This document shows positions 40,632 to 58,440 of a stretch of DNA of 64,000 nucleotides, one piece after another. The notes beneath the pieces are model-generated. The model was not told the origin of the DNA. It did no database searches and saw only the letters and a list, made by a program, of their open reading frames with translations. Origin of the DNA: Rhodospirillaceae bacterium (GTDB taxonomy: Bacteria > Pseudomonadota > Alphaproteobacteria > Bin65). The stretch spans positions 1 to 64,000 of the forward strand of contig JAPOST010000161.1 in NCBI GenBank assembly GCA_026709535.1. Direction: 5' to 3'. How positions within the stretch are numbered: position 1 is the first letter of the stretch; each line of letters starts with the position of its first letter. The translations under genes and the position numbers were made by a program.

Positions 40632-40671
40632 CCAGCAGACAATGAACGATAAAGAGGAGCCAGTCAGTCTC

Positions 40672-42015
40672 ATGAGCGATTCCCTGTCCCAACTCGGCGA
40701 CCTTTTGAAGGCGGCAATATCTGTTGGCGCCGATGCAGCCGATGCTGTCTATGTCGAAGGGGAGGCGATCTCGCACACCCAGCGCCTGGGGAATTTGGAA
40801 ATGATTGAGCGGTCGGAAGGCCAGGACCTTGGCCTGCGGGTGTTCGTCGGCAGGCGCCAGGCCAGCGTCTCGGCGCAAAAAGTCGATTTCAGGGATTTCG
40901 GCGCCTTGGCCTCCAGGGCGGTAGCGATGGCGCGCGCGGTGCCGGAAGATTTGTATTGCGGGATTGCCGATCCCGACCAGATCGCGATGACCCCGCCTGT
41001 TTTCGAAATGGCTGACGAAACCGAGCCTCCGGAAAAGTTGCTGATCGAACGTGCCCGAGCGGCAGAGGACGCAGCCCGTACCGTCAAAGGCGTCACTAAC
41101 TCCGAAGGGGCAGAGGCGTCGTGGAGCCGGACCGCTGTTACCCTCGCGACAACTAACGGGTTTGAAGGCAAATACTGGCGCACAGCGCACAGTGTGAGCG
41201 TTTCTGTTGTGGCGGGTAGCGGTGCCGATATGCAAACCGATTACGACCATCACACGACGGTCTTTTCGGATGACCTCATGGATCCGGCCGAAATTGGCCA
41301 GAGCGCTGGCGAACGGGCAGTGGCCCGATTGGGCGCCCGGTCAATAAAAACGATCAAGGCGCCGGTCGTGTTCAGCAAGAGAGTCGCCGGCAGCCTTTTG
41401 GGGCATCTTCTGAACGCCATCAACGGGTCGTCCATCGCGCGGGGCACCAGCTTCCTGAAGGATGCGCTGGAGAAACCGGTGATGGCAAGTGACCTGAATG
41501 TTACCGACGACCCGCACAAGCCGCGTGGCTTGAGATCAAAGCCGTTTGACGGTGAGGGAGTACCAACCGCACGGCGAAAGCTCATCGACAATGGCGTTCT
41601 GACGACTTGGCTGCTGGACCTGAGATCTGCTCGTCAACTTGGTCTCACGCCCACTGGTCACGCCAGCCGCGGAACTTCAGGACCACCTTTCCCATCTGCG
41701 GCAAATGTCTTCCTTGAGCCCGGATCGGTGTCGCGCAACGCTCTCATTGGCGGTATCAAGGAAGGTCTTTACGTGACCGAGATCATTGGTATGGGAGTGA
41801 ACGGAGTAACGGGTGACTATAGCCGCGGCGCAGGTGGATACTGGATCCGCAATGGCGAACTGGCATTCCCTGTAACTGAATTGACCATCGCCGGCAATTT
41901 GAAGGACATGTTTCGCACCATCACGCCAGCGAGCGATCTGGAATTTCGTCATGGCGTTGACGCGCCAACCTTGCGGGTGGACAGCATGACGATCGCAGGC
42001 ACGCAGGGTGGCTGA
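40672..42015 (+). CDS. pmbA: TldD/PmbA family metalloprotease subunit (PmbA)
   Basis: DLGLRVFVGRRQASVSAQ; RGLRSKPFDGEGVPTARRKLIDNGVLTTWLLDLRSARQLG; GVNGVTGDYSRGAGGYWIRNGELAFPV. Confidence 0.94.
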   Translation: MSDSLSQLGDLLKAAISVGADAADAVYVEGEAISHTQRLGNLEMIERSEGQDLGLRVFVGRRQASVSAQKVDFRDFGALASRAVAMARAVPEDLYCGIADPDQIAMTPPVFEMADETEPPEKLLIERARAAEDAARTVKGVTNSEGAEASWSRTAVTLATTNGFEGKYWRTAHSVSVSVVAGSGADMQTDYDHHTTVFSDDLMDPAEIGQSAGERAVARLGARSIKTIKAPVVFSKRVAGSLLGHLLNAINGSSIARGTSFLKDALEKPVMASDLNVTDDPHKPRGLRSKPFDGEGVPTARRKLIDNGVLTTWLLDLRSARQLGLTPTGHASRGTSGPPFPSAANVFLEPGSVSRNALIGGIKEGLYVTEIIGMGVNGVTGDYSRGAGGYWIRNGELAFPVTELTIAGNLKDMFRTITPASDLEFRHGVDAPTLRVDSMTIAGTQGG

Positions 42016-42172
42016 TGCGTTACCATCAGTACAGTGGTGTCGAATGGCTGGCGCTGTACCGCGACCGTCGTTGGTTTACCGATGGCGCAAAGCTTTGTAA
42101 TATTCGGAGCAGATAGTGGCTCGAACCACCTGCTCGAGACCGCTCAACAAAGATACCCGGGAGGTTTTATCC

Positions 42173-43195
42173 ATGAAATACAAACTCGCCGCGATGGGTG
42201 TTGCCGTGGCGATGACGGCGCTGACGCCGGCATCACAGGCTGCTACGGAGTTCAGTTTCTCGAATTGGATTCCCTGGACACACAATCTCGCAACCCGACT
42301 GTACATTCCCTGGATGGAAGAGATCGAGCAGAAGACCAACGGGCGGGTAAAGTTCAAGCGCCTGCCCAAGCCCGTCGCCCATCCGCGTGCGCACATGGAT
42401 GCGGTGCGGACAGGCCAGGCGGATGCAGCGTTCGGCGTCCATGGTTATTCACCGCGCCGACTGCGCGCCTATCTGTTCACCGACTTCCCGCAGCTAGGCG
42501 AAAGTGCGGTGGCCACGTCTGTCGCCTTCCAGCGCACCTATGAGAAGTTCTTCAAGAACAAGGGACACTACAAGGGCGTGCACCTGATCGGCATGAACAC
42601 CCATGGCCCAGGCGTGATCCACCATGCCAGCAAAATCATCAAGTCGATCGCCGACATGAAAGGCCAGAAAATCAGGACCGGGGGGCCAGTGCCGCGGCTG
42701 ATTGTTCAGACTTGGGGCGGTGTCTCGATCCGCCAGCCAGCGCCAAAATCATACGAACTGCTGTCCACCGGTGTTGTCGACGGAGTCACCTTTCCGTACG
42801 AAGCCCTGGTCGGCTTCAGGATTGTCAACCTGGTAAAGTTCCACACGGAAATCCCGGGTGGCCTGTACAGTTCCGGCTTCTACACCTTCATCAGCAAAAA
42901 GAAGTATGACGCGCTGAGCGCTGCAGACAAAAATACGATCGACGCCACCTCCGGCGAAGCCTTTGCCTTGCGGGCGGGCAAGGTCTGGGATCAGAACGAC
43001 GCCGATGGCCTGGCGGCCGCAAAGAAAGCCGGTCATACCTTTGCAAAGGCTTCGGACGAAATCATGGCATCTGTCAGGCAGATCAAGGCCAAGTTGGAAG
43101 CGCAGTACGTTGCCGACATGAAGAAGGACGGCATAGACGGCGCCGAGGTCCTGAAATACTTCCACGGCGAACTGGGCAAGGTTCAGAAGAAATAG
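42173..43195 (+). CDS. TRAP transporter substrate-binding protein (DctP family)
   Basis: Signal peptide MKYKLAAMGVAVAMTALTPASQA; FSNWIPWTHNLATRLYIPWMEEIEQKTNGRVKFKRLPKPV; KIRTGGPVPRLIVQTWGG. Confidence 0.94.
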   Translation: MKYKLAAMGVAVAMTALTPASQAATEFSFSNWIPWTHNLATRLYIPWMEEIEQKTNGRVKFKRLPKPVAHPRAHMDAVRTGQADAAFGVHGYSPRRLRAYLFTDFPQLGESAVATSVAFQRTYEKFFKNKGHYKGVHLIGMNTHGPGVIHHASKIIKSIADMKGQKIRTGGPVPRLIVQTWGGVSIRQPAPKSYELLSTGVVDGVTFPYEALVGFRIVNLVKFHTEIPGGLYSSGFYTFISKKKYDALSAADKNTIDATSGEAFALRAGKVWDQNDADGLAAAKKAGHTFAKASDEIMASVRQIKAKLEAQYVADMKKDGIDGAEVLKYFHGELGKVQKK

Positions 43196-43198
43196 CTG

Positions 43199-43753
43199 AT
43201 GGCCCGGGACGCGCAGCCGGACAAGGCGCGCGACAGAAGTCTGCTGGTATCCGTGCTGGGCCGGTGGCCTAGCCGGGTACTGGCGGTTCTTTCGTGTTTG
43301 TTTCTTTTTGCCATGATGGCTGGAACATTCATCGACGTCGCCGGCCGCTATCTGTTCAACAGCCCGTTGCCAGCATCGGCGGAACTGATTTCCTTCACCA
43401 TGCCGGCGCTGATTTTCTGCGCCCTGCCACTGGTATGTTTCCGTGAAGATAACGTAACGATCGACCTTCTGGATACTTTCGTAAACGGATGGTGGCGCTC
43501 GGCACAGGGGATCTTCGTCAACCTGCTCAGCGCGGCAACGATGCTGTTCATGGCTTGGCGGCTATGGGCCAGACACCTGGATCATGTGGAATATGAGGAT
43601 GTGACAGACGAGTTGTTCATTCCGTTGGCGCCGTTCAGCCTGATGATGGCTGTGTTGTCCGTGGTGGCAGCCGTCGCGCTGATCGCCAATGTTGTGGCGT
43701 ATTCGATCGGCGAGCGGAAACATGCCTCTGATGCAGGACCGGGTGCCTCGTGA
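43199..43753 (+). CDS. TRAP transporter small permease (DctQ family)
   Basis: Four-TM protein with GTFIDVAGRYLFNSPLPASAELISFTMPALIFCALPLV, between DctP and DctM genes. Confidence 0.93.
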   Translation: MARDAQPDKARDRSLLVSVLGRWPSRVLAVLSCLFLFAMMAGTFIDVAGRYLFNSPLPASAELISFTMPALIFCALPLVCFREDNVTIDLLDTFVNGWWRSAQGIFVNLLSAATMLFMAWRLWARHLDHVEYEDVTDELFIPLAPFSLMMAVLSVVAAVALIANVVAYSIGERKHASDAGPGAS

Positions 43754-45066
43754 CGACGGCGCTGATTGGGTTTGCCGTTCTTCTGACATTATCGTTCCTT
43801 CGGGTGCCGATCGCGATCTCGATGTTGCTCGTCGGTTTCGTCGGGATGTCACTGGTGCAAGGCTGGTACGCAGCGCTGGCCAATGTCGGGGAGACCGCTT
43901 TCACTTCTGCCATCAATTATGAGTTGTCGGTGGTACCGCTTTTCATCTTGATGGGCAATTTCGTGACGCGGGCTCGATTGTCCGAGGAACTCTACACCGC
44001 GTCGAACGCGTTCCTGGGCCATCGCAAGGGCGGGCTTGCAATGGCAACGATCGTGGCTTGCGGCGGGTTCAGCGCCGTGTGCGGCAGTTCTCTGGCGACG
44101 GCGGCGACAATGGCCAAAGTCGCGATGCCTTCGATGCGGCGCTACGGCTATGACGACGGCTTGGCGGCAGGCGCCATCGCCGCTGGCGGCACGCTGGGCA
44201 TTCTTATCCCGCCCAGCGTTCTACTGGTCATCTATGGGATCCTGACCCAGACGAGCATTGGCAAGCTGTTCGCAGCCGGTGTCATTCCTGGCGTCATCGG
44301 CATACTCGGTTATTTGATTGCGGTTCGTGTAGTCATCACCATCTGGCCACATTTGGGACCACCGGGTGAACGAACCGCCTGGCCGGACCGGATGCGCGCC
44401 CTGCGGGGCGTATGGGGTGTGATCTTGCTCTTCGTCTTCGTGATGGGTGGCATTTACGGCGGCGTCTTCAGCCCTACCGAGGCGGCCGGCATCGGCGCCT
44501 TCGGCGCCTTCCTTTTCGCGCTGGCCCGGCGTTCAATGAATTTGCGGGTCTTCTACGAAGTGCTGCTGGAGAGCGCTCTGACGACGGCGATGTTGTTCAT
44601 GATCCTGATCGGTGCGCTCATATTTGCCAACTTCATCAATTACACCGATTTCCCGCCTGCGCTGCTGGGCATGGCCAACAATTTCAAGGATTCACCCTGG
44701 CTGGTTGTGATCGCGATCCTGATCATTTACGTGCTGCTGGGCTGCGTTTTCGAAAGCCTGTCGATGATCTTGCTGACAGTACCGATATTCTTCCCGCTGA
44801 TCAAAAGCCTCGCGCCGGGTTTCGAGATGACGGAAGTAGAAGTCGCGGTATGGTATGGGATCGTGGTGGTGATCATCACGGAGATCAGTCTGATTACGCC
44901 TCCGGTGGGTCTGAATGTGTTCGTACTTCGCGGAGTTCTTCAGGATGTGCGGACTACAACGATCTTCCGGGGCGTGACCGCTTACTGGATTGCCGATTTG
45001 TTTCGCCTTGCCCTTATCGTAGGGCTGCCGGCGCTCTCGCTCTGGCTTCCCAGTTTCGTGAAATAG
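43750..45066 (+). CDS. TRAP transporter large permease (DctM family)
   Basis: FLRVPIAISMLLVGFVGM; CGGFSAVCGSSLATAATMAKVAMPSMRRYGYDDGLAAGAIAAGGTLGILIPPSVLLVIYG. GTG start overlaps the DctQ stop. Confidence 0.96.
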   Translation: MTTALIGFAVLLTLSFLRVPIAISMLLVGFVGMSLVQGWYAALANVGETAFTSAINYELSVVPLFILMGNFVTRARLSEELYTASNAFLGHRKGGLAMATIVACGGFSAVCGSSLATAATMAKVAMPSMRRYGYDDGLAAGAIAAGGTLGILIPPSVLLVIYGILTQTSIGKLFAAGVIPGVIGILGYLIAVRVVITIWPHLGPPGERTAWPDRMRALRGVWGVILLFVFVMGGIYGGVFSPTEAAGIGAFGAFLFALARRSMNLRVFYEVLLESALTTAMLFMILIGALIFANFINYTDFPPALLGMANNFKDSPWLVVIAILIIYVLLGCVFESLSMILLTVPIFFPLIKSLAPGFEMTEVEVAVWYGIVVVIITEISLITPPVGLNVFVLRGVLQDVRTTTIFRGVTAYWIADLFRLALIVGLPALSLWLPSFVK

Positions 45067-45158
45067 GGACGTTGGTATCGACGGCTGATGTACGGACGAT
45101 CGACGAGCGACTGCGCCGTGCAGAGGTTTCCGGCTCTCGAATTTCCGGCGGCGCCTTG

Positions 45159-45184
45159 TGATCCAGATCGGGCCAGCCTGCGTA
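45159..45184 (+). promoter_or_regulatory. Putative ECF/RpoE-ChrR type promoter, autoregulatory
   Basis: TGATCC (45159-45164), 18 nt, then TA (45183-45184) in context GCGTACC, upstream of the ATG at 45218. Confidence 0.75.
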
Positions 45185-45217
45185 CCATTGCAGACGCATA
45201 CAAGAATCGGCGACATC

Positions 45218-45892
45218 ATGGCGACCCTGCAAACGCTAAATTGTTCCGCAAAGCTGTTCTACCGCAGGTCATCCGTTCGACCACTGCCATTGCGCGGGGA
45301 TGCGGCGCGCCAGGGATGGCGACGAAGCGTGACCAGCCCTGACGCCGAACGCTTGCTGATCGCGGTCGCACAACATCGCGACGATCAGGCGTTCGCGAAT
45401 TTGTTCAGCGAATTTGCGCCGCGGATCAAGGCCTTTATGCTCAAGGGCGGGGCGGATGGCGCGGTTGCCGAAGAACTTGCGCAAGAGACCATGGTTCAGG
45501 TCTGGCGTCGCGCATCAAGCTACGATCCCGTGAAGGCGTCGGCGTCGACATGGATCTTCACGATTGCCCGGAACAAGCGGATCGATCGACTTCGCAGAGA
45601 GAGCCGTCCGACCCTTGATCCTGAACTGTATGTATCCAGTCAACCGCAACCCACGAGCCCTTTCGACACGGTCGAAGCGCACCAAAAAAAAGCACTGCTG
45701 CATCAATTTGTGGCGCACCTTTCCACCGAGCAGATCGAGGTTGTGGAGAAGGCCTTCTACCAAGACAAACCCCACTCGGCGATTGCGGAAGATCTCGATT
45801 TGCCGCTGGGTACCGTCAAATCTCGCATTCGGCTGGCACTTGGCCGCCTGAGGATGTTGATAGAGAAACAAGGCATGGAGGAGAACAGCTAA
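45218..45892 (+). CDS. rpoE: ECF sigma factor, RpoE/ChrR-associated (ECF11-like)
   Basis: FANLFSEFAPRIKAFMLKGGADGAVAEELAQETMVQVWRRASSYDPVKASASTWIFTIARNKRIDRLRRE; sigma4 HSAIAEDLDLPLGTVKSRIRLALGRLR. The ORF-track start at 45158 sits on the promoter, so ATG 45218 is preferred. Confidence 0.92.
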   Translation: MATLQTLNCSAKLFYRRSSVRPLPLRGDAARQGWRRSVTSPDAERLLIAVAQHRDDQAFANLFSEFAPRIKAFMLKGGADGAVAEELAQETMVQVWRRASSYDPVKASASTWIFTIARNKRIDRLRRESRPTLDPELYVSSQPQPTSPFDTVEAHQKKALLHQFVAHLSTEQIEVVEKAFYQDKPHSAIAEDLDLPLGTVKSRIRLALGRLRMLIEKQGMEENS

Positions 45893-46569
45893 TGATCCAC
45901 CACCGCCCGCCTCACGATATCTTGGTGGATTATGCTACCGGCGCCCTTGCACAGCCGCTTGCCATCGCGGTAGCAACGCATGCTGAGCTTTGTCCCGAAA
46001 GCCTGGCCGAGATCGCTGATATCGAAGCTGTCGGCGGTGTGATGCTGGCCTCGCTGGAACCAGTCAAAATGTCTGAAAACGCGCTCGACCGGGTCATGGC
46101 TCTGGTTGGCGAAATGGACAACCGCATCCCGGATACCGAGATCGATGCTGGTCCAGACATCTCAATGCGAGATGAAATCCGGAAGTCTGCATTGCCGCCG
46201 GCGATTCGGGCAACGCTGGACGGCAAGACAGATACCATCGCGTGGCAGCGCAGGGGTCCGGTCATCGAGTCAACCGTGCTGGACTGCGATCTGGACAATT
46301 ACGAAGTCCGGCTGTTCCGTATCAAGGCCGGCAAAACGGTGCCACAGCATACCCATGAAGGGCTGGAAATCACCGTTTGTCTGACTGGCGGATATACTGA
46401 TGGCCGGGATCGATATGCGCGTGGCGATTTTCAGGTCGCCGATCCAATGGTGAATCACCAACCAGTTGCAGACAATGACGAGCATTGCATTGTCCTGACG
46501 GTCTTCGAGAAAGACATCCGACTGACCAGCCCGCTGGGCCGGCTGATTAATCCCTTCGTCCGACTCTGA
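45892..46569 (+). CDS. chrR: ChrR-type zinc anti-sigma factor with C-terminal cupin
   Basis: ZAS-type Hx3C (THAELCPES) and cupin motif GKTVPQHTHEGLEITVCLTGGYTD...YARGDFQVADPMVNHQPVADNDEHCIVLTV. Confidence 0.92.
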   Translation: MIHHRPPHDILVDYATGALAQPLAIAVATHAELCPESLAEIADIEAVGGVMLASLEPVKMSENALDRVMALVGEMDNRIPDTEIDAGPDISMRDEIRKSALPPAIRATLDGKTDTIAWQRRGPVIESTVLDCDLDNYEVRLFRIKAGKTVPQHTHEGLEITVCLTGGYTDGRDRYARGDFQVADPMVNHQPVADNDEHCIVLTVFEKDIRLTSPLGRLINPFVRL

Positions 46570-46571
46570 TC

Positions 46572-47357
46572 TTGCTCGCACTCGGGTTCCAAACGGCTTG
46601 GATTGTCGGGGCCAGTACCGGCATCGGCGCCGAACTGGCGCGGCGCCTGGCCGCGAACGGTTGCCGTGTTGTCGTCTCGGCTCGGCAAACTGGAAAACTT
46701 GAAGATCTTGCCGCCGAGGCGTCATCAGATCGCATGACAGCCGTGACAGCCGATGTGACAGACGAAGCATCAATCACTGAAGCATGGGCAGCGGCGCGCC
46801 AGACCCTGCAGGGTCCTCCCGACCTGTTGGTGTTCAATGCCGGCCTGTTCTCACCTGTGGATGTGCGGAAGTTTTCTGCTGCCCTGTTCCGGCAGCACAT
46901 TGAGGTCAACCTGATGGGCGCCGCGCGGGTCCTTGAACACGTGTTGCCAGACATGATTGCGCGGGGTGACGGCCGCATTGTACTCGTAGGCTCTGTCTCT
47001 GGCTATCGGGGTCTGCCCAAGGCTGCGGCCTACGGAGCTTCCAAGGCCGCCCTGATTCATCTGGCGGAAACGCTGCGACTCGAAATGGCCCCGGCGGGAA
47101 TCATGGTGCAGATTGTCAATCCGGGGTTTATCGACACGCCGATGACGGCGCAAAACGACTTTCCCATGCCGCATCTGATGACAATCGAACGCGCCGTAGA
47201 TGCCTTTATTGCCGGTCTGAGAAGCAGTTCTTTCGAGATTACTTTTCCCAAGCGCTTCACGTGGCAACTCAAGCTGCTTCGTCTGCTGCCGTATTGGCTG
47301 TATTTTCGGATCATCCGCCGCATCACGCGACCGGACCGAGGAGCTAAGTCGGTCTGA
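46572..47357 (+). CDS. Short-chain dehydrogenase/reductase
   Basis: TAWIVGASTGIGAELARRLAANG; VLVGSVSGYRGLPKAAAYGASKAAL (S...YxxxK). Apparent TTG start 2 bp after chrR. Confidence 0.93.
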   Translation: MLALGFQTAWIVGASTGIGAELARRLAANGCRVVVSARQTGKLEDLAAEASSDRMTAVTADVTDEASITEAWAAARQTLQGPPDLLVFNAGLFSPVDVRKFSAALFRQHIEVNLMGAARVLEHVLPDMIARGDGRIVLVGSVSGYRGLPKAAAYGASKAALIHLAETLRLEMAPAGIMVQIVNPGFIDTPMTAQNDFPMPHLMTIERAVDAFIAGLRSSSFEITFPKRFTWQLKLLRLLPYWLYFRIIRRITRPDRGAKSV

Positions 47358-47862
47358 ACACTGCCGTCACGCGGCCCACCAGAATGCCGAACTTGCGGGC
47401 CTGAGAAACGTTCAGCAATTCGCCGCTCGGTCGCAGATACAAGCGGTCATCAAACGACAATACGATTTTTCTGGGTCCGATAGCCACAGCTATGCGATAG
47501 CGCCACCGAACTTCATTCTGCAGCGTTTCTGCTTTCGCAGTGCCGATGACATCTTTAGCGGTTGCAACCATCCGATCATGAGATTGTCGTCGAATGCGCC
47601 ATTCCCGTTCTTCAACCCGTCCGTCGTCATATCGGAAATCTTCTGCAAGGCAGAATACGTCGCCCTCCCAGCGACCGTGCATCGTCATGTTAAAGCCGAG
47701 ACGCTTACGGCCGAATCGGTCGTGGAAGAGACCCGAGCCTTCTATCCGCCGGTTGAAATATTTGAACGTGTCCAGCCCCCCGGACAAACTGGTATTGGCG
47801 CCCGCTCCGTCAGCGTCGGGTGCACGGGTCAGAAGCGTGGTTGTGGAGTGTGTCAGGGTCAA
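47344..47862 (-). CDS. DUF3833 family protein
   Basis: LDTFKYFNRRIEGSGLFHDRFGRKRLGFNMTMHGRWEGDVFCLAEDFRYDDGRVEEREWRI; member of the ChrR-linked cluster. Confidence 0.8.
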   Translation of the reverse strand: MTLTHSTTTLLTRAPDADGAGANTSLSGGLDTFKYFNRRIEGSGLFHDRFGRKRLGFNMTMHGRWEGDVFCLAEDFRYDDGRVEEREWRIRRQSHDRMVATAKDVIGTAKAETLQNEVRWRYRIAVAIGPRKIVLSFDDRLYLRPSGELLNVSQARKFGILVGRVTAVFRPT

Positions 47863-47944
47863 GATCTTGATCGCGTGCTGGTTTCAGAACTGTCTAGATT
47901 TTACGTTCGCTCGGCCGATTCGGATCACCCCGACCTGATGCTGC

Positions 47945-49162
47945 TCAAACCCGCAGCAACCCGATTTGTCGGACGTCGATATTGCCCGCTCGGAATCCAC
48001 CTTCGCAGTAAGCGAGATAAAGTGTCCACAGGCGCTTGAACCGTTCGTCGAAACCTTGGCTGGTCAGTTTCGGCCATGCTGTCAAGAACCGCTGGCGCCA
48101 TTCTGAAAGCGTGCGGGCGTAGTGCTGGCCAAAGCCGTCATCGCCAGTAACCTTTAGGCCGGCCTTGCGGAACTGCTCTGCCAATGCCGTGCGGCTCGGC
48201 AGCATGCCGCCTGGAAACACGTGGCGTTGAATGAAATCCACCGATTGCCGATAGCGCGGGAACAGCATGTCATCAATCGTGATGATCTGAAGGGCGGCTC
48301 GACCGCCTGGCGCCAAGACATCACGTATCTTGTCAAAATAGGGCGACCAGTATTTCTCACCGACCGCTTCGAACATTTCGATCGAGGTGACGTGGTCGTA
48401 CTTCTCCGCCACATCGCGATAGTCCCGGAACTGGACATCGACCTTGTCGCCAAGGCTTTCCTTCTGGACGCGCGCGGCCGCATAGTCATGTTGCTCCTTC
48501 GAAATGGTCAACGCCGTGACGTTCACGCCGCGCTCTCGGGCGGCGACGGCTGCAAACCCGCCCCAACCGCAGCCGATTTCAAGGACGCGGTCACCCTCCT
48601 GGGCGCCAGTGATGTCCAGCAGGCGGCGGTACTTGTTTTCTTGACCAGCCTCCAACGGCTCATCTGCACCTTCAAAAACGGCGGATGAATAGGTCATCGT
48701 AGGATCCAGCCACGCCTCGTAGAATGCGTTACCCAAATCGTAATGAGCCGCGATGTTTCGTCTGCTGCCTGTCGGCGTGTTCTGTCTCCGCCGATGCTGC
48801 AGCTTTGCTGTGAATCGGGACCAAGTCTGGAGCAACGTCCAGTCTTTCGAGGGCTCTTGGTGGAGAGCACCCAATTCAATGGCAGCCGCCAGGTCGGGGC
48901 TGTCCCAATCACCATCCAAATAGGCTTCGGCGAGGCCCAATGCGCCACCGAACAGCAGTCGGCGCACCGATCGCCAGCGGTGGACTTTCAGATAAGCGTC
49001 CGGGCCGGGCTCGGTCCCGATCAGGCGACTCAGGCGTCCGTCAGGCCATTCTACCGCAAAGGTGCCGTAGCGGATCTTGCCGCGCAACCATGCCGTGAAG
49101 GCGCGCCGTGCGCCGAAAGGAATGGATTCAGAACTTGCGTGTGTCATGGTCCTGTCTACCAA
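47945..49162 (-). CDS. Cyclopropane-fatty-acyl-phospholipid synthase family methyltransferase
   Basis: NIAAHYDLGNAFYEAWLDPTMTYSSAVFEG; VLEIGCGWGGFAAVAARERGVNVTALTISKEQHDYAA; IQRHVFPGGMLPS. Confidence 0.95.
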   Translation of the reverse strand: MVDRTMTHASSESIPFGARRAFTAWLRGKIRYGTFAVEWPDGRLSRLIGTEPGPDAYLKVHRWRSVRRLLFGGALGLAEAYLDGDWDSPDLAAAIELGALHQEPSKDWTLLQTWSRFTAKLQHRRRQNTPTGSRRNIAAHYDLGNAFYEAWLDPTMTYSSAVFEGADEPLEAGQENKYRRLLDITGAQEGDRVLEIGCGWGGFAAVAARERGVNVTALTISKEQHDYAAARVQKESLGDKVDVQFRDYRDVAEKYDHVTSIEMFEAVGEKYWSPYFDKIRDVLAPGGRAALQIITIDDMLFPRYRQSVDFIQRHVFPGGMLPSRTALAEQFRKAGLKVTGDDGFGQHYARTLSEWRQRFLTAWPKLTSQGFDERFKRLWTLYLAYCEGGFRAGNIDVRQIGLLRV

Positions 49163-49931
49163 ACCGGCCAGCGCGTTCGCGAAGGGACAAGCGCTTGCGC
49201 GAGCGAAACGGTGCGCCCTTGATCCAAAGTTTGAGGGCCTCCCAGTAGATCCCCAAGGTTACCTTCAATGTCATCAACGGCTGGCGCAAGAACATGCCTA
49301 GCAGGGCACGGTCGTTCAAATCCGCACGCTTGCCCGAAAGGGTCGCGACCATCAGGTTGGCACCGTCCGGGCCGGTTTCGCGAATAGTCACGGCAATCCG
49401 GTCTGCCGGAGCCGACAATCGGAACTCGTAGCGCGCCGCCATTCCGATAAACGGTGACACGTAAAACTCCTTGTCGGCGTGGTGCGGTGCAAACCTGTCC
49501 TGCCCGCCTGACACTTCAACGGGGATCACATAGGCGTGCCGCCCGCCGAAGGTATTATGCACTTCATAAATGATTGCCCCAATCCGCCCGTCTGCATCGG
49601 CGCAATACCATACCGAAAGCGGATTGAACGCATAACCCAACATCCTGGGAAGGCATAACAGGTAGAGACGCGCGCCGAATTCCGCAAGGCCGGCTTGGTC
49701 AAGCCGGTCTTCCGCCCACTGGCGCAAGGGAGTCTCATCTCGATGGCCGTGGTCGCGGCGACGTACTGAAAAGGGGCGTGATCGATCGACGCCGAACAAG
49801 CGCAAGCGGCGGTCGAGAATTGGCAACTCATCAATGTCGAGCAGGCAATAGGTAACCCGATAGGCCAACTTGTGGGCGGGACCGTGCTTGCGTCTGTGCG
49901 TGACACGGCAGTGATACAATGCCGAAATCAT
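49128..49931 (-). CDS. DUF1365 family protein
   Basis: ALYHCRVTHRRKHGPAHKLAYRVTYCLLDIDELP; LCLPRMLGYAFNPLSVWYCADADG; KEFYVSPFIGMAARYEF. Confidence 0.92.
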   Translation of the reverse strand: MISALYHCRVTHRRKHGPAHKLAYRVTYCLLDIDELPILDRRLRLFGVDRSRPFSVRRRDHGHRDETPLRQWAEDRLDQAGLAEFGARLYLLCLPRMLGYAFNPLSVWYCADADGRIGAIIYEVHNTFGGRHAYVIPVEVSGGQDRFAPHHADKEFYVSPFIGMAARYEFRLSAPADRIAVTIRETGPDGANLMVATLSGKRADLNDRALLGMFLRQPLMTLKVTLGIYWEALKLWIKGAPFRSRKRLSLRERAGRFGRQDHDTRKF

Positions 49932-51310
49932 GCGGTCGATGCCGAGTCGACTGGTCGGGTCCGATCGCCGTCAAAAGGCGCCCGAAATCCCATGCTCTTG
50001 ACAACAGCAAGACCCGCGTTCAGGCCGTCTTCATGAAAGCCATAGCCGCACCATGCGCCAGCGAACCACACATGCCGGCGGCCTTGGATCAAGGGAAGCC
50101 GCTCCTGAGCAGCGACGGCTGCCTGATCGAACTGTGGATGGCGAAAGTCGATTTCATCAACGGTGCATTCCTCGCGCGGTGGTGAGGGCGGGTTGAGGGA
50201 CACAAAGATATCCTGTGACTTCTCGATACCCTGGAGACGGTTCAGCCAGTAGGTCACCGACGTTGGCTGATCCTGCCGATCCGTCTCTGCCCAACTGCGA
50301 CGATCAACGACGTTCCAACTAGACCAGACGGCCTTGCGTCGGGGCATCAGCGACGAGTCGGTATGCAAGAAGGTCCGGTTTGTCTCGAAGGGGAAAGCAC
50401 CCAGAATTGCTGTTTCATCCGCATCCGCATCGCTAAGCAGTTGCAGCGCAACATCCGCGTGAACCGCCAGAATCGCGTCGTCAAAGACCTGCGCGTCGCC
50501 CGCTGCCGGAAGAACCGTGACGCCCTCGGCATCGCGGCGCAACGACCGGATGGGCGTTTGAAGACGTACAGTGCCCGAGAACTGGTTGAGAATGGCTTCG
50601 ACATAGCACCGGCTCTTGCCTGCAACAGTGAGCCATTGAGGTCGACCTTTGAGGTCGAGCAGACCGTGATTCCGGAAAAAATTGCCAAGCGTTTTTGCTG
50701 GAAAACCCAGGATAGACCGGGGCGAACTGGACCAAATTGCCGCCGCCATAGGCAGGATATGCCAGTCGATGACGGGCCGACCGTAGCTGCCGGCCACCAG
50801 ATACGCGCCCAGGGTCACCTCGCCCAGTCGTCGGGCGGCGGTATCCTCCCGGAGGCTACGATAGAACCGAAGCAGGTCGCGAAGCATGCCGAGATAGGAC
50901 GGTCGGATCAAATTCCTGTGCTGGGCGAACAACTGTCGCCAATGGCGCGAGCATGCGTATTCGACGTCGGCCCATTCCAGCGACACGCTAAACGACATGT
51001 CGCTCGGCTGGACAGCGACATCCAGGATATCGAAGAGGCGAGTAAGGTTTGGATAGGTACGACGGTTAAAGACCATGAAGCCTGTGTCGACCGCCAGAGG
51101 TGCGCCGCCTGAACCAACGTCTGGCACGGTGACGGTTCGGGCGTGTCCGCCCACGGTCGCGCCGGCCTCGAACAAGGTTACATCGGCTTGGTGATCCGCC
51201 ATCCAGGCTGCGGACAACCCTGCGATGCCTCCGCCTATGACGGCTATCCGTCTCCGCCCGCGTCGGATAGCTGGCTGGCGATGGGGAATAGCTGCGATGC
51301 CGTCGAACAT
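49928..51310 (-). CDS. FAD/NAD(P)-dependent amine-oxidase-like oxidoreductase
   Basis: RRRIAVIGGGIAGLSAAWMADHQADVTLFEAGATVGGHARTV; VDTGFMVFNRRTYPNLTRLFD. ATG start at 51310; the ORF-track TTG at 51334 overlaps the promoter. Confidence 0.93.
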   Translation of the reverse strand: MFDGIAAIPHRQPAIRRGRRRIAVIGGGIAGLSAAWMADHQADVTLFEAGATVGGHARTVTVPDVGSGGAPLAVDTGFMVFNRRTYPNLTRLFDILDVAVQPSDMSFSVSLEWADVEYACSRHWRQLFAQHRNLIRPSYLGMLRDLLRFYRSLREDTAARRLGEVTLGAYLVAGSYGRPVIDWHILPMAAAIWSSSPRSILGFPAKTLGNFFRNHGLLDLKGRPQWLTVAGKSRCYVEAILNQFSGTVRLQTPIRSLRRDAEGVTVLPAAGDAQVFDDAILAVHADVALQLLSDADADETAILGAFPFETNRTFLHTDSSLMPRRKAVWSSWNVVDRRSWAETDRQDQPTSVTYWLNRLQGIEKSQDIFVSLNPPSPPREECTVDEIDFRHPQFDQAAVAAQERLPLIQGRRHVWFAGAWCGYGFHEDGLNAGLAVVKSMGFRAPFDGDRTRPVDSASTA

Positions 51311-51338
51311 GAAATTCTTTCTGCGGTCTTCCAAGAGA

Positions 51339-51364
51339 TACGCCAGTGCCGCGTTTTTGGATTG
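51339..51364 (-). promoter_or_regulatory. Putative ECF-type promoter for the FAD-oxidoreductase-led operon
   Basis: Minus strand CAATCC (51364-51359), 18 nt, TA (51340-51339) in context GCGTATC; ATG at 51310. Spacing matches the rpoE and rpoH-type promoters exactly. Confidence 0.5.
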
Positions 51365-51574
51365 CCCATTTTTAAAGTGCGAATCTCATACGAAAAAGAT
51401 CCGAACGTTGCGGCTGTGCTACCTTCGGCGGAGCATCGTGATTTGAGACCTTGTTGCGTTCGAGAAGATCCAGGGACGTTTCTTCATGGAGCGCAGCGCG
51501 GAGACCGTCAGCTCTTTTCGGTAATTGATGGCGCAGAGGGCGGCCGCCGGCTGTGTTGAAGGCGGGGGCAACAG

Positions 51575-51600
51575 TGATCCGTTCGGCGTCGGCCAGCGTA
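51575..51600 (+). promoter_or_regulatory. Putative ECF-type promoter for the RpoH-type sigma gene
   Basis: TGATCC (51575-51580), 18 nt, TA (51599-51600) in context GCGTAATAC; ATG at 51653. Confidence 0.75.
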
Positions 51601-51652
51601 ATACTTTTGCAGTTACCCCAGCGCGGCAAGCCAAGGCCGATCGGAGCGTCAT

Positions 51653-52540
51653 ATGTCTGTGGTTTCACGAAGCCCGGTTCGTTTTCTGTCCGAAGAAGAA
51701 GAACGCAACATCCTGAAACGCTGGACCCGACATCGAGACAGCACTGCATTGGACCGGCTGATCGACTCGCACCGTCCCTTGGTGTTGAAACTCGCGACCC
51801 GCTACCGTACGGGCGCACTATCCCTTGCCGATCTGGTGCAGGAAGGCTTCGTTGGTCTGATGGAGGCAGCCAACCGTTTCGATACGGATCGTGAAGTCCG
51901 GTTTGCGACTTACGCTCAATGGTGGATCCGCAGCACCATGCAGGAATTCGTCCTGCGTAACATGTCGGCGGTCCGCTCCGTCACCTCATCACGTCAGAAG
52001 TCGCTCATGTTCACGCTACGCAAGATGGCGGATGACCCGGAAACCCCTCCGCCCGATGCAGAGACCAAGGCCGAACTTGCTCAGCGATTCGGCGTATCTT
52101 TGGCGGCGGTAGACCGAATGTCGATGCGCATGAACGCCTTTGACCAGTCTCTGGATGCCGTGATCGGTCCGTCCGGCGATCTGGTCCTGAAGGACCTGAT
52201 CGCCGATGAGGGACCTACGCCGGAAGATACGCTCATGGAAACAGATGAGCGACTGCAGAAACGGGCCTGGCTGAAATCCGCACTAGCGAACCTTCCAGAC
52301 CGAGAGCGGCGCATCATCGAAGGGCGCCACCTGGGCGACGGGAAATTGTTGTTGCGAGAACTGGGCGACGAGATGGGCGTCAGCAAGGAGCGGGTGCGTC
52401 AGCTCGAAGCGCGCGCCATGGAGACGTTGCAAAAGACCGCTAAATGCGACCTCGCCGCTGGCGGCCTGTTGCGATCGACTGCCTCCACGAAGCGAATTGT
52501 GCCGGTGAACCGGACGGGCTGCCCGGGGCAACTGGTTTGA
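51653..52540 (+). CDS. RpoH/sigma-32 family sigma factor (RpoHII-like by context)
   Basis: LIDSHRPLVLKLATRYRTGALSLADLVQEGFVGLMEAANRFDTDREVRFATYAQWWIRSTMQEFVLRN; ERRIIEGRHLGDGKLLLRELGDEMGVSKERVRQLEARAMETL. Confidence 0.93.
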   Translation: MSVVSRSPVRFLSEEEERNILKRWTRHRDSTALDRLIDSHRPLVLKLATRYRTGALSLADLVQEGFVGLMEAANRFDTDREVRFATYAQWWIRSTMQEFVLRNMSAVRSVTSSRQKSLMFTLRKMADDPETPPPDAETKAELAQRFGVSLAAVDRMSMRMNAFDQSLDAVIGPSGDLVLKDLIADEGPTPEDTLMETDERLQKRAWLKSALANLPDRERRIIEGRHLGDGKLLLRELGDEMGVSKERVRQLEARAMETLQKTAKCDLAAGGLLRSTASTKRIVPVNRTGCPGQLV

Positions 52541-52547
52541 GAGACGC

Positions 52548-53141
52548 TTGATCGATTGTTTTGCCCCACGTGCTGGTCTGTTCCTCGACAGGGACGGGGT
52601 TGTGAATGTCGATACCGGCTATGTTCACCACCCAGACCAGATCGATTTCATCCCTGGGATTTTTGACCTGTGCCGGACGGCTGTCCAGCTTAATTTGCCG
52701 ATCATTATCGTGACCAACCAGTCCGGCGTGGCGCTTGGCCTCTACTCCCAAGCGGATTTTCATGGCCTGATGTGTTGGATCCATGACCAATTTGCCAACG
52801 AAGGCGTGGGGATTGCCCATGTCGAGCATTCGCCCTGGTATCCGCCGGCACTGGCCGAAATTGCGGCGACAGACCTGAACTGGACCTGGGTTCGGGATTC
52901 ATGGTGGCGCAAGCCAGGCGCCGGGATGGTCCGGCGCGCGGCAATGATCACGGGTGTTGATCCGGCTCTGTCAACGATGATCGGTGACCGTGCAGGCGAT
53001 GTGGCCGCTGCACGAGAAGCCGGAATCGGCACCGTCATCCAGTTTGAGCATGAGGCACCACGAGCTACACGGCACAACGCTGATCAGTTCTGCACTCAAC
53101 ACGAACAGGTGATCGAAATCCTGCGCCAGATCTACGGCTGA
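52548..53141 (+). CDS. HAD-IIIA phosphatase, GmhB-like (heptose bisphosphate/histidinol-P phosphatase family)
   Basis: AGLFLDRDGVVNVDTGYVHHPDQIDFIPGIFDLCR; IIIVTNQSGVALG; RKPGAGM; STMIGDRAGDVAAAREAG. Confidence 0.88.
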   Translation: MIDCFAPRAGLFLDRDGVVNVDTGYVHHPDQIDFIPGIFDLCRTAVQLNLPIIIVTNQSGVALGLYSQADFHGLMCWIHDQFANEGVGIAHVEHSPWYPPALAEIAATDLNWTWVRDSWWRKPGAGMVRRAAMITGVDPALSTMIGDRAGDVAAAREAGIGTVIQFEHEAPRATRHNADQFCTQHEQVIEILRQIYG

Positions 53142-53166
53142 TGAACTCCCGCTTTATATTCGGCGC

Positions 53167-54744
53167 ATGATTGACGGGACGCCATTCCTCCGGCTATGGG
53201 CCCGCCGACGTCGCCAACAACTAGCCGCCATGTCGCCTGTCGAGACGCAACGGAACCAGTTGCTGAAGCTGGTGCACGCGGCGCGACGAACCGTCTTCGG
53301 CAAGACGCACCGTTTTGACATCATTCGATCGGTTGGGGATTTCCAGTCCGCCGTGCCGATCCGAGATTACGATGCGTATCAGGATGATATATGGAAAGAC
53401 CGCTTTCCAGATCTGACAGACACTGGCTGGCCCGGTCCGGTTGTCTGGTATGCCGTGACCAGCGGCACCACCCGCGACGTGACCAAGTACATTCCCGTGA
53501 CTCAAGCAATGATCCAGTCGAACAAGCAAGCGGTACTGGACATGTATGCCCATCATCTGGCTGCAAAGCCGGACAGCAGGGTTTTTGGCGGCTTGAACTT
53601 CATGCTGGGTGGCAGCACAGATTTGACAACCTTGGCGCCGGGCATTCGCGCCGGCGACCTCTCCGGCATTGCCGCTGCGACCATGCCTGCATGGGTGCGC
53701 CCGCGCATCTATCCACCGCAGGAACTAGCGCTGGAAGCGGATTGGGAACGCAAGATCAACCTGATGGCCAGAGGAAGTGTGAACAAGGACATCAGGTCGA
53801 TTGCCGGCACACCAAGTTGGTTGTTGTTGTTGTTTGACAAATTGGCGGACTTTCGCCCGGAGGTTGATCGCGACGTGACCCGTATATGGCCCAATCTCGA
53901 CCTCGTCGTCCATGGTGGTGTGCGCTTCGACCCCTACAAGCCGCAATTCGATACTTGGGTCCGTGGCCGGGACGTTGATTACCGCGAGGCTTACGCGGCC
54001 AGCGAAGGGTTCATCGCGAGCAGCGACCGAGGCTTTGGTCAAGGCATGCGGCTCAATCTGGATACAGGCCTTTTTTTTGAGTTTATTCCATTGGATGACT
54101 TGGGCAGTGCAACGCCGACGCGCCACTGGATTGGCAATGTGGAACCGGGGATCGACTACGCAATCGTATTGTCGACCTGCGCCGGATTGTGGGGCTGGTT
54201 GATCGGTGATACAGTACGGATTGTCGAACGGGATCCGCCGCGGTTGCTCGTCTCCGGTCGGACCAGTTACATGATGTCGGCTTTCGGGGAACACCTGATC
54301 GGTGACGAAATCGACAGGGCTGTTATCCACGCCGCGGAGACGGCCGGCCTCCGGGTGACAGACTATGCCATGGGCGCAGTATTTCCGACGGCCGACCGAC
54401 CGCTGGGCGGGCATCGCTACTTGATTGAATTTGCTTCCGGCATTCCGGCAGAAACCGTCGTCGAGGCGATTGGGAGAGCGATCGATGGCAATCTGGCGGA
54501 AGGTAACGCGGATTATGCCGCGCACCGATCTGGCGGCTACGGAATGCTGGCACCAGTGGTGTTCGCCAAGCCGCCCGGTTTCTTTGCCGCCTGGATGAAA
54601 AGTCGAGGCAAGTTGGGAGGTCAGAACAAGGTACCCCGCGTGATAAACGACACAGTCGTTTTTGACGAATTGGCGGCATTCGCGTTCGGGGAGCCGGAAT
54701 GCAGGTCAGTTGCGGGAGAGGATGACACGAAGGGTCCTGGTTGA
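53167..54744 (+). CDS. GH3-family (acyl-adenylate/amide-synthetase-like) protein
   Basis: QLLKLVHAARRTVFGKTHRFD...FQSAVPIRDYDAYQDDI...WYAVTSGTTRDVTKYIPVTQAMI; YREAYAASEGFIA. GH3 auxin-responsive-promoter fold. Confidence 0.88.
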   Translation: MIDGTPFLRLWARRRRQQLAAMSPVETQRNQLLKLVHAARRTVFGKTHRFDIIRSVGDFQSAVPIRDYDAYQDDIWKDRFPDLTDTGWPGPVVWYAVTSGTTRDVTKYIPVTQAMIQSNKQAVLDMYAHHLAAKPDSRVFGGLNFMLGGSTDLTTLAPGIRAGDLSGIAAATMPAWVRPRIYPPQELALEADWERKINLMARGSVNKDIRSIAGTPSWLLLLFDKLADFRPEVDRDVTRIWPNLDLVVHGGVRFDPYKPQFDTWVRGRDVDYREAYAASEGFIASSDRGFGQGMRLNLDTGLFFEFIPLDDLGSATPTRHWIGNVEPGIDYAIVLSTCAGLWGWLIGDTVRIVERDPPRLLVSGRTSYMMSAFGEHLIGDEIDRAVIHAAETAGLRVTDYAMGAVFPTADRPLGGHRYLIEFASGIPAETVVEAIGRAIDGNLAEGNADYAAHRSGGYGMLAPVVFAKPPGFFAAWMKSRGKLGGQNKVPRVINDTVVFDELAAFAFGEPECRSVAGEDDTKGPG

Positions 54745-55127
54745 AGAGACACTGCCTGAGCGTCAGAGTCTCTCAGCTATCAGCGCAAGCCGGGAGGTAG
54801 TCGCGGTCGACAACGCCGAGAATGGCTGCGCGTCGGAGCGACCCGATGGAATCGTTTGTTCCTGTCAAGCAGCTTTCGTGGTCGGGAGGCGCTGGCGGAG
54901 CGCAGCAGTCTTTGGCAGGAGTGTTGAAACCGGGACCGCCGAGACCGGGTCCACCGGCCGACCACGTCGTGATGCGCTCGCCATTGCGCAATCAATTACT
55001 GCTATCAGCCGGGTGTCCATCCCGCACCAACCTTGTATACCTCGACAGCGCAGAGACGTTGACCACCTTCTTCATCGGCGCAGCGTCCTTGCGTCAATCA
55101 ATCGATGCAACTGAGAGTGATTTGTCA

Positions 55128-56765
55128 GTGACCACCATCTACTCCGCCCGGAAGATCATCACCATGAACCCGGCGCGCCCCTACGCTACCCATGTCGCCG
55201 TGCGTGACGGACGGATCCTGAGCGCCGGCGCGCTGGAGGAAATGCAGGGTTGGGGCGACTACATGCTGGACGATCGCTTCGCCGACAAGGTCTTGATGCC
55301 GGGGTTGGTCGAAGGCCATAGCCACACGATGGAGGGCTCCCTGTGGGAGTATGTCTATTGTGGTTACTTCGACCGCATGGATCCAGACGGAAAGGTGTGG
55401 CCGGGCCTGAAGTCAGTTGACGAGATCATAGAGCGCTTGACTCAGGCGGCCGCCAGGCTTGACGAGCCGACCACGCCATTGGCCGGCTGGTCGCTGGACG
55501 CCATCTATTATGGCGGTCGGCGGATCAATCGTAACGATCTGGACCGAGTTTCAACGGAACGGGCCATCGGGATCCTGAATGCCTCCGGTCACATTCTGAA
55601 CGTCAATACCAAGGCGCTGCAACTGGCTGGCCTTCTGAAACCTGGCATCAACCATCCGGGGATTCCGCTGGACGATGAAGGTCTGCCAACTGGCGAAATG
55701 AAGGGCCCTGACGCCATGGCGCCACTGGGCATCCATACCGGCTTCGATCGCGACCTGCTGGCCTGTGATGAACCGGGATTGCGCCGGTTCGCGCGTTTGT
55801 GCGTGCGGACCGGGGTGACGACAGCGGCGGACTTGGCCAACATGCTGCCTGATGGCGCCGTTGACATGATGGTTCGGGTGACGGCTGAGCCGGATTATCC
55901 GGCCCGAATCGTCTCGCTACGCCGGTTCTATGGCCTGACACCAGCCGAATTGATCGACAGAGTGCTGGAATTGGAAAAACGCAGTCAGCAGAACCTCCGT
56001 CTCGGTATCATCAAGGTTGTGCTGGATGGATCGATTCAGGGTTTTTCGGCGCGCCTCCGCTGGCCGGGCTACTACAACGGTGCCGCAGAAGGGCTATGGT
56101 ACGTCCCACCCGAGCATCTGCAGGAAATTTACGAACGGGCCTTGGCTGCGGGCATTCAGGTGCATACTCATACAAATGGCGACGAAGCTACCGAACTGGC
56201 ACTGGATTGTATGGAAACCTCGTTGCGCAAGCATCCTGGTCCTGATCACCGGTTCACACTGCAGCACTGTCAGCTGGCAGATGCCGCACAGTATCGGCGC
56301 ATCAAGACGGTCGGCATGTGCGTGAACCTGTTTCCAAACCACCACTTCTATTGGGGCGATCAGCACTACAGCATCACGGTAGGCCCCGACCGCGCCGAGC
56401 GCATGAATGCTTGCGCCACAGCGCTACGGATGGGTGTGCCGCTTGCGATCCATTCGGATGCACCAGTGACGCCGCTCGGGCCGCTGTTCACCGCCTGGTG
56501 CGCCGTGAATCGGCGAACGGCGTCGGGTCGGGTCTTAGGAGAACATGAAAGAATCAGCGTGAAAGACGCCTTGCGGACCATTACCATCGGCGCGGCCTAT
56601 ACGCTGAAGCTGGATGCGGAAATCGGCTCCGTCGAGACCGGCAAACGAGCCGATCTGGCAGTGCTGGAAGACGATCCGGAAGCAGTTGGCGGCGAGAACC
56701 TGAAAGATGTCAGGGTCTGGGGGACAGTCCAGGGCGGCCGCATCTTCGAGGCTGCCGCCATCTAG
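55128..56765 (+). CDS. YtcJ-like amidohydrolase (amidohydrolase_3)
   Basis: TIYSARKIITMNPARPYATHVAVRDGRILSAG; VLMPGLVEGHSHTMEG; HTHTNGDEATELALDCME; IHSDAPVTPLGPLFTAWCAVNRRT; IGSVETGKRADLAVLEDDP. GTG start inferred; the ORF track extends to 54822. Confidence 0.92.
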   Translation: MTTIYSARKIITMNPARPYATHVAVRDGRILSAGALEEMQGWGDYMLDDRFADKVLMPGLVEGHSHTMEGSLWEYVYCGYFDRMDPDGKVWPGLKSVDEIIERLTQAAARLDEPTTPLAGWSLDAIYYGGRRINRNDLDRVSTERAIGILNASGHILNVNTKALQLAGLLKPGINHPGIPLDDEGLPTGEMKGPDAMAPLGIHTGFDRDLLACDEPGLRRFARLCVRTGVTTAADLANMLPDGAVDMMVRVTAEPDYPARIVSLRRFYGLTPAELIDRVLELEKRSQQNLRLGIIKVVLDGSIQGFSARLRWPGYYNGAAEGLWYVPPEHLQEIYERALAAGIQVHTHTNGDEATELALDCMETSLRKHPGPDHRFTLQHCQLADAAQYRRIKTVGMCVNLFPNHHFYWGDQHYSITVGPDRAERMNACATALRMGVPLAIHSDAPVTPLGPLFTAWCAVNRRTASGRVLGEHERISVKDALRTITIGAAYTLKLDAEIGSVETGKRADLAVLEDDPEAVGGENLKDVRVWGTVQGGRIFEAAAI

Positions 56766-56779
56766 CATTGAGAGATACG

Positions 56780-57700: not shown

Positions 57701-58440
57701 CGGCGGAGGCGCTAACTGATCACCCTGTGAGTGCACACGGCTGATGTTCAGGATCTGGATAGAGATCAGGAGGCTGACTGTTTTTACCGTCAACGCACTC
57801 ATCGCCTTGAGCCCGAACCAAGTACCGCCGGTCAGCTCGGTTCGCAGCACGAACAATTCCCTCTGGTCTTGGTAAGCGATGCCGGGCACCAGACAGATCG
57901 CCTTTCCTCGATCAGAAGCGGCCTGCCGAAATGGCCGTTGCAGTTGATGCCTGGGCCGCGACCCGACGTATCACCCTTCTAGGAGCCCGGATACTCGCTC
58001 AATGTTGTATCCATGCCTATCCGGTCAGCGCACACAGCTACCAGATGTTGGGTGCCAACCCGATGATTGATGCCGTTCATGAACTATCCCTGGTGGGTGT
58101 ATGTGACAACCGGATAGGCACAGTTGTATCAAGCATTCGTTCCTGAGACGCGACTTTGAAAAGCCCATTACCCCAAAAAGGCCTACCGCCAGTTTGCAGC
58201 CTACTAGCAAGGCTGCCTGGCAGATCGGGTTGTGGGCCCTCAGCACTCGCTTGCGCAAGCCATATGACAGTCTCAATCGAGCGCGTGATTATTGGGGTAT
58301 TTTCCGGAGCAATGGGCTGCCGCTTCCTGGCAGCGACTGCGACAGATAATATTGCAGATGCTGAAACTGTCTTCGCGGAAAGCGTCGCCACAGTTGATGT
58401 CCGTGCAGTGGGTGTTGGCAGCAAGGACACCTAACAGCCA

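What the first reader, a model, noticed from the sequence alone, without database searches (positions are those of the whole stretch)
45159..51653. Three promoters with identical xxATCC-N18-(GCG)TA architecture define a compact ECF/ChrR regulon spanning 6.5 kb
Seen directly: TGATCC-N18-TA before the ECF sigma gene (45159), TGATCC-N18-TA before the RpoH-type sigma gene (51575), and CAATCC-N18-TA on the minus strand before the FAD-oxidoreductase-led operon (51364-51339). All three have GCG immediately before the TA and exactly 18 nt of spacing. Established: in Rhodobacter sphaeroides, RpoE/ChrR recognises a TGATCC-type -35, controls the singlet-oxygen response and activates rpoHII. Inference: all genes between the two sigma factors form one inducible regulon in this organism, with the sigma cascade hard-wired at one locus.
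Basis: partly seen in the sequence, partly recalled or inferred. Interest (0 to 1): 0.75.

Follow-up and report, generated by a model that had tools for sequence, protein, structure and literature searches.

The report
Singlet-oxygen sigma regulon, zinc-less ChrR
This is a compact copy of the known bacterial alarm circuit against light-generated singlet oxygen, in a photosynthetic bacterium; the promoters and most genes match the known system, but its brake protein ChrR has lost half of the zinc site thought essential in the model species.

Summary
Observation confirmed. All three sites are at the stated positions, and a fourth exact one (TGATCC-N16-CGTA) lies at 47927-47902 (minus), before the DUF3833 gene. 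The motif is the published ECF11 consensus. It occurs 10 times in the 3.67-Mb genome, 3 of them in this 6.5 kb, and stands before most of 89 chrR-linked ECF genes with the same spacing. The genes are the known core regulon: ECF sigma, ChrR, SDR, DUF3833 and the furan fatty acid trio UfaM/O/D, plus an RpoHII-type sigma gene whose linkage recurs in several relatives. The genome carries bchCXYZ-pufLM, so a singlet-oxygen role fits. The regulon is therefore ordinary, although induction remains unshown. Among 100 alphaproteobacterial ChrRs examined, 81 have all four, 18 lack both of these and one lacks Cys38 only; the cupin zinc ligands are invariant. Parsimony gives about 12 changes, five with strong support. 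The zinc site of ChrR is debated as a singlet-oxygen sensor; natural ChrRs without it, still beside the same promoters and furan genes, make that testable.

The parts
45159..45184 (+). P1: TGATCC-N16-CGTA promoter of the ecf-chrR-SDR operon (autoregulation)
   Evidence: the same motif upstream of the ECF gene in 59 of 89 chrR-linked loci exactly, 67 with a relaxed pattern
45218..45892 (+). ECF sigma factor, closest solved relative R. sphaeroides RpoE/SigE (start ATG 45218 assumed)
   Evidence: PF04542/PF04545; 2q1z_A 152.8 bits, E 1e-43, next best 70.7 bits
45892..46569 (+). ChrR-family anti-sigma factor; cupin zinc ligands H153 H155 E159 H189 present; anti-sigma-domain ligands reduced to H30 and C34 (R5 and S37 in place of His6 and Cys38 of R. 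sphaeroides)
   Evidence: TIGR02451 180.8 bits, cut-off 124.5; AlphaFold model pLDDT 90.7, best PDB match 2q1z ChrR, TMt 0.87
46572..47357 (+). short-chain dehydrogenase/reductase, third gene of the ecf operon (RSP1087-type core regulon member; start uncertain)
   Evidence: PF00106; same position in L096, L097, L098, L119, L133
47344..47862 (-). DUF3833 protein (start uncertain, TTG 47862), convergent with the SDR gene
   Evidence: PF12915 136 bits
47902..47927 (-).
   Evidence: exact site before DUF3833 also in L127, one mismatch in L099
47945..49162 (-). UfaM-type CMAS-family fatty acyl methyltransferase (start uncertain)
   Evidence: PF02353 286.5 bits; adjacent to UfaO/UfaD as in relatives
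49128..49931 (-). UfaO (DUF1365)-type enzyme
   Evidence: PF07103 259 bits; PMC7380195 for the function of relatives
49928..51310 (-). UfaD-type FAD-dependent fatty acyl desaturase (ATG 51310 preferred; ORF open to TTG 51334)
   Evidence: PF01593/PF13450; PMC7380195 for the function of relatives
51339..51364 (-). P3: CAATCC-N16-CGTA promoter of ufaD-ufaO-ufaM, degenerate -35
   Evidence: TGATCC/CGATCC at the same place in L096, L097, L099
51575..51600 (+). P2: TGATCC-N16-CGTA promoter of the rpoHII-type gene
   Evidence: exact site before the linked rpoH in L099, L119, L130
51653..52540 (+). RpoHII-type sigma-32 family factor
   Evidence: NF005693 254 bits, cut-off 315; groups with the ufa-linked RpoH of L053/L054, apart from the genus-wide RpoH
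52548..54744 (+). HAD hydrolase and OlsH-like lyso-ornithine lipid synthetase, possibly co-transcribed with the rpoHII gene
   Evidence: gaps of 7 and 25 nt; not conserved in relatives

Best explanation
A self-contained ECF11 regulon for singlet oxygen and lipid peroxide stress in an anoxygenic phototroph. ChrR holds the ECF sigma factor until singlet oxygen or organic peroxides inactivate it. The freed sigma factor transcribes its own operon (P1), the furan fatty acid operon ufaD-ufaO-ufaM (P3), DUF3833 (P4) and the RpoHII-type gene (P2), which would then run a wider oxidative stress response. Furan lipids would feed back on ChrR turnover as in R. sphaeroides. In this organism and several other alphaproteobacterial lineages the anti-sigma domain of ChrR has lost the His6 and Cys38 zinc ligands and probably folds without zinc, while the cupin metal site is retained, so the signal most likely enters through the cupin domain or lipid products and not through zinc-site oxidation. 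Shown by sequence: promoters, genes, conservation, ligand loss. Inferred: transcription, induction, absence of zinc.
For: Sites and genomic rarity. Published consensus: TGATCC(N15)GCGTA in R. sphaeroides (PMC5036791), TGATCC-N16-CGTA by ChIP-Seq in P. syringae (PMC5507510), mapped start sites in Shewanella (PMC4336711). Conservation of motif and spacing before the ECF gene: spacer 15 found once and spacer 17 never, reversed control 0. Gene identities. Conserved cluster. Core regulon and cascade: PMC6852236, PMC3441632, PMC7380195. Phototrophy genes. Zinc ligand pattern. Fold.
Against: No expression data. P3 is degenerate. Photolyase, a core member elsewhere, has no site here. The relatives in this family with the cluster lack reaction-centre genes, so the cluster is not tied to phototrophy in the family. 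With His30 and Cys34 left, weak metal binding with other donors cannot be excluded. The ChrR sample is the best 100 or so hits to this ChrR, not an even sample.
Confidence: 0.82

Rival explanations
1. Same regulon, but ChrR here has been retuned to another signal (organic hydroperoxides or a cupin ligand), so singlet oxygen is not the trigger.
For: The zinc site proposed as a singlet-oxygen sensor is broken; in R. sphaeroides t-BOOH and singlet oxygen act on ChrR by separable routes (PMC6852236); non-phototrophic relatives keep the cluster.
Against: Cupin ligands, two of them required for the singlet-oxygen response, are intact in 101 of 101 aligned ChrRs; furan fatty acid genes needed for singlet-oxygen-driven ChrR turnover in R. 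sphaeroides are present; the host has pufLM.
Confidence: 0.3
2. ChrR here is a poor or non-functional brake, so the regulon is largely constitutive.
For: In R. sphaeroides zinc binding is required for ChrR to inhibit its sigma factor (PMC6852236 citing Newman 2001).
Against: Repeated joint loss of His6 and Cys38 with the rest of the protein conserved; other anti-sigma domains work without zinc (RseA, RskA; PMC7406223); high-confidence model of the domain.
Confidence: 0.12
3. The promoter matches are chance in GC-rich DNA.
For: TGATCC-N18-TA alone occurs 79 times in the genome.
Against: Full motif clustering, P about 3e-7; position and spacing conserved across families.
Confidence: 0.01

Closest known systems
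R. sphaeroides RpoE-ChrR (ECF11) core regulon
   Same: Promoter consensus, ECF and ChrR families, SDR, UfaD, UfaO, CFA/UfaM-type enzyme, RpoHII under the ECF sigma (PMC6852236, PMC5507510, PMC3441632, PMC7380195)
   Different: RpoHII-type gene physically joined to the cluster; UfaM inside the ufa operon (R. sphaeroides ufaM is RSP2144, apart from RSP1087-1091); no promoter seen at the photolyase; ChrR lacks His6 and Cys38
R. palustris ufaM-ufaO-ufaD (RPA2569-2571)
   Same: Three adjacent genes sufficient for furan fatty acid synthesis (PMC7380195)
   Different: The passages read do not describe the ecf-chrR and rpoHII linkage seen here
Zinc-independent class I anti-sigma domains (RseA, RskA; mixed groups AS27, AS19-1)
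   Same: Anti-sigma helical bundle without the Hx3Cx2C motif; mixtures within a group have been reported (PMC7406223)
   Different: Those are not ChrR-cupin proteins of an ECF11 singlet-oxygen regulon; loss inside the ChrR family with an invariant cupin site was not found described in the papers searched

Membership tests
ECF11 sigma factor / RpoE(Rsp) promoter class | -35 TGATCC and -10 CGTA with 16 nt between, upstream of the own gene | tested here: met
   consensus in PMC5507510 and PMC5036791
ECF11 sigma factor / RpoE(Rsp) promoter class | sigma-2/sigma-4 protein closest to R. sphaeroides RpoE, encoded directly before chrR | tested here: met
ChrR anti-sigma factor | anti-sigma domain plus cupin-like domain, TIGR02451 above cut-off | tested here: met
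   (180.8 against 124.5 bits); fold
ChrR anti-sigma factor | cupin zinc ligands H141, H143, E147, H177 | tested here: met
Zinc-binding anti-sigma (ZAS) subfamily | His6 ... His31-x3-Cys35-x2-Cys38 | tested here: not met
   R-H-C-S in the window ChrR; so it is a ChrR but not a ZAS protein by motif
Furan fatty acid pathway | UfaM, UfaD and UfaO homologues together | tested here: met
   Pfam family and linkage only, no direct comparison with the R. sphaeroides enzymes
Furan fatty acid pathway | production of 9M5-FuFA | not testable with these tools
   needs fatty acid analysis
RpoHII sigma factor | second RpoH paralogue, distinct from the housekeeping RpoH, under ECF11 control | tested here: inconclusive
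   separate clade and promoter P2 fit, but below the NCBIfam equivalog cut-off and not compared directly with R. sphaeroides RpoHII
Singlet-oxygen-inducible regulon | induction by singlet oxygen, loss of control without chrR | not testable with these tools
   experiment needed

The most novel reading that the evidence does not exclude
ChrR in this phototroph, and independently in several other alphaproteobacterial lineages, senses singlet oxygen without the anti-sigma-domain zinc site, through the cupin metal site and/or furan-lipid products alone. That would mean the HHCC zinc site is structural and dispensable in evolution and not the sensor.
Probability: 0.4. Interest if true: 0.62.

Novelty: new variant of a known kind. 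Interest (0 to 1): 0.42.

Why it matters
The regulon itself confirms and extends a known circuit. The zinc-less ChrRs matter because a review states that the role of the anti-sigma-domain zinc in the singlet-oxygen response is unknown (PMC6852236), and a peptide study argues that this zinc site is the sensor while calling its role debated (PMC6432622). Natural variants that lost it while keeping the cupin site, the promoters and the furan lipid genes give a direct genetic test, using laboratory R. sphaeroides as host.

Tried and rejected
The genome-contig scan with UfaO found only 12 distant loci, which were not used further. Of the seven other exact motif copies in the genome, most lie inside or antisense to ORFs and none is clearly before a regulon-like gene; C132:4048-4073 is the most promoter-like but has no convincing gene behind it. 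The null distribution was sampled from the same loci and so contains true sites; its p-values are conservative. Antisense counts for ECF and UfaD reflect divergent promoters, not noise. Photolyase as a regulon member: no site. Rfam: nothing in 40000-58000. MAG mis-binning as the reason for absence from the genus: made unlikely because the neighbouring PmbA gene is 71-74% identical to genus mates.

Full report
1. Observation. A fourth site, perfect in TGATCC-N16-CGTA, lies at 47927-47902 on the minus strand, 40 nt before the DUF3833 ORF. The site before ufaD has a degenerate -35 (CAATCC).

2. Chance. In the window RATCC-N15-GCGTA is seen 3 times against 0.17 expected. In the whole 3.67-Mb genome TGATCC-N18-TA occurs 79 times, TGATCC-N16-CGTA 10 times and ATCC-N15-GCGTA 20 times. 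Three of the 10 and three of the 20 fall in this 6.5 kb; Poisson P is 3e-7 and 4e-6, post hoc. Of the other seven exact copies most lie inside or antisense to ORFs, so the detectable high-match regulon is this locus. Degenerate members elsewhere would be missed by this search.

3. Conservation. Neighbourhoods of 99 further ChrR genes from the family and class were read. Upstream of the ECF gene the exact motif is present in 59 of 89 and a slightly relaxed one in 67 of 89. Spacers of 15 or 17 between TGATCC and CGTA give 1 and 0 hits, and the reversed motif gives 0. Before ufaD the exact or nearly exact motif (TGATCC or CGATCC) stands at the orthologous place in L096, L097, L099, L105, L108, L114, L117 and L131. 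Before the linked rpoH the exact motif stands in L099, L119 and L130, and a broken one in L097. This supports P3 and P2 by position.

4. Genes. ECF sigma (best solved relative R. sphaeroides RpoE), ChrR (TIGR02451), SDR, DUF3833, CMAS methyltransferase, DUF1365 and a FAD amine-oxidase-like enzyme, then a sigma-32 protein that groups with the ufa-linked RpoH of relatives and apart from the genus-wide RpoH. DUF1365/FAD/CMAS correspond to UfaO/UfaD/UfaM of the furan fatty acid pathway (PMC7380195). The order ecf-chrR-SDR > < DUF3833-ufaM-ufaO-ufaD, rpoH > recurs in L097 and L119 and, as far as the contigs reach, in L098 plus L099 (one genome); L096 has it without the rpoH.

5. What is known. TGATCC-N15-GCGTA is the published RpoE promoter in R. 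sphaeroides (PMC5036791), TGATCC-N16-CGTA the ChIP-Seq consensus in P. syringae (PMC5507510), with mapped start sites in Shewanella (PMC4336711). The core regulon (rpoE, chrR, SDR, a lipoprotein, UfaO, UfaD, CFA-type enzyme, photolyase) and the RpoE-to-RpoHII cascade are published (PMC5507510, PMC6852236, PMC3441632). So the regulon is a new instance of a known one. Differences here are the linked rpoHII-type gene, ufaM inside the operon, and no site at the photolyase. That DUF3833 equals the RSP1088 lipoprotein is a guess from position; the window protein shows no clear lipobox.

6. Host. The genome carries bchCXYZ and pufLM and is the only one of the 11 genomes of its family with a reaction centre. 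The ECF11 cluster is found in this genome and in three family members of other genera, and not in six genus mates. The contig belongs to the genus by its neighbouring gene. A singlet-oxygen role is plausible, but in the family the cluster does not follow phototrophy.

7. The departure. R. sphaeroides ChrR binds zinc in its anti-sigma domain through His6, His31, Cys35 and Cys38, and in its cupin domain through H141, H143, E147 and H177 (PMC6852236). The window ChrR has Arg, His, Cys, Ser at the first set and all four of the second. Over 100 ChrRs (R. sphaeroides excluded) 81 have both His6 and Cys38, 18 lack both (absent or unaligned for His6), 1 lacks Cys38 only and none lacks His6 only (Fisher 6e-19, not corrected for relatedness). 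The cupin set is intact in 101 of 101. On a tree of ECF plus ChrR without the ligand columns the trait changes at least 12 times by parsimony; five losses sit beside intact sisters on branches with SH-aLRT of 95 or more (L191, L183, L134, L189, L198, a quick tree). Two of three other family members that could be read share the loss (L096, L098) and one does not (L097). Zinc-less ChrRs keep the TGATCC promoter in many cases (8 of 17 exact, 11 of 17 relaxed within 300 nt; more at larger distance), and several sit beside ufa genes (window, L096, L119, L133, L188, L203). AlphaFold gives a confident fold for the domain (pLDDT 96-98 over the first 50 residues) and the R. sphaeroides ChrR structure as best match; the predictor does not model zinc, so this does not show that the domain folds without it.

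8. Meaning. One paper argues that the HHCC site reacts fast with singlet oxygen and may be the sensor, and calls its role debated (PMC6432622); a review says its role is unknown (PMC6852236). Zinc-free anti-sigma domains are known, also mixed within groups (PMC7406223), but I found no description of this loss within the ChrR family in the papers searched (the library lacks most subscription papers). If such a ChrR still represses and still answers singlet oxygen, the sensor is elsewhere, most likely the cupin domain and lipid products. That step is inference.

9. Verdict. Observation confirmed; interpretation right in outline and largely known; induction untested. The zinc-less ChrR is the part worth following.

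Noticed in passing
G000 contig C141, L243:533-8050: bchC-bchX-bchY-bchZ and pufL-pufM: the host is an anoxygenic phototroph, alone among the 11 genomes held for its family.
   Followed up: partly
window 52548-54744: A GmhB-like HAD hydrolase and an OlsH-like (GH3) lyso-ornithine lipid synthetase follow the rpoHII-type gene within 7 and 25 nt; a possible membrane-lipid branch of the same regulon, absent from the relatives read.
   Followed up: partly
L193:2124-2786, L225:2171-2827: ChrR genes with a TGATCC/TAATCC-N16-CGTA site 109-161 nt upstream and no ECF sigma gene detected just before them: possibly orphan, separately controlled ChrRs.
   Followed up: no
L102, L103 upstream of the ECF gene: The autoregulatory -35 reads TAATCC with a 17-nt gap to CGTA instead of TGATCC with 16, so spacing may vary in that lineage.
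   Followed up: no
G000:C132:4048-4073: An exact TGATCC-N16-CGTA site in AT-rich, apparently intergenic DNA near a contig end with no convincing gene downstream; a candidate for a small RNA such as Pos19.
   Followed up: no
window 42116-45066: A TRAP transporter operon (periplasmic, small and large subunits) ends about 90 nt before promoter P1 on the same strand, so readthrough into the ecf operon is possible.
   Followed up: no
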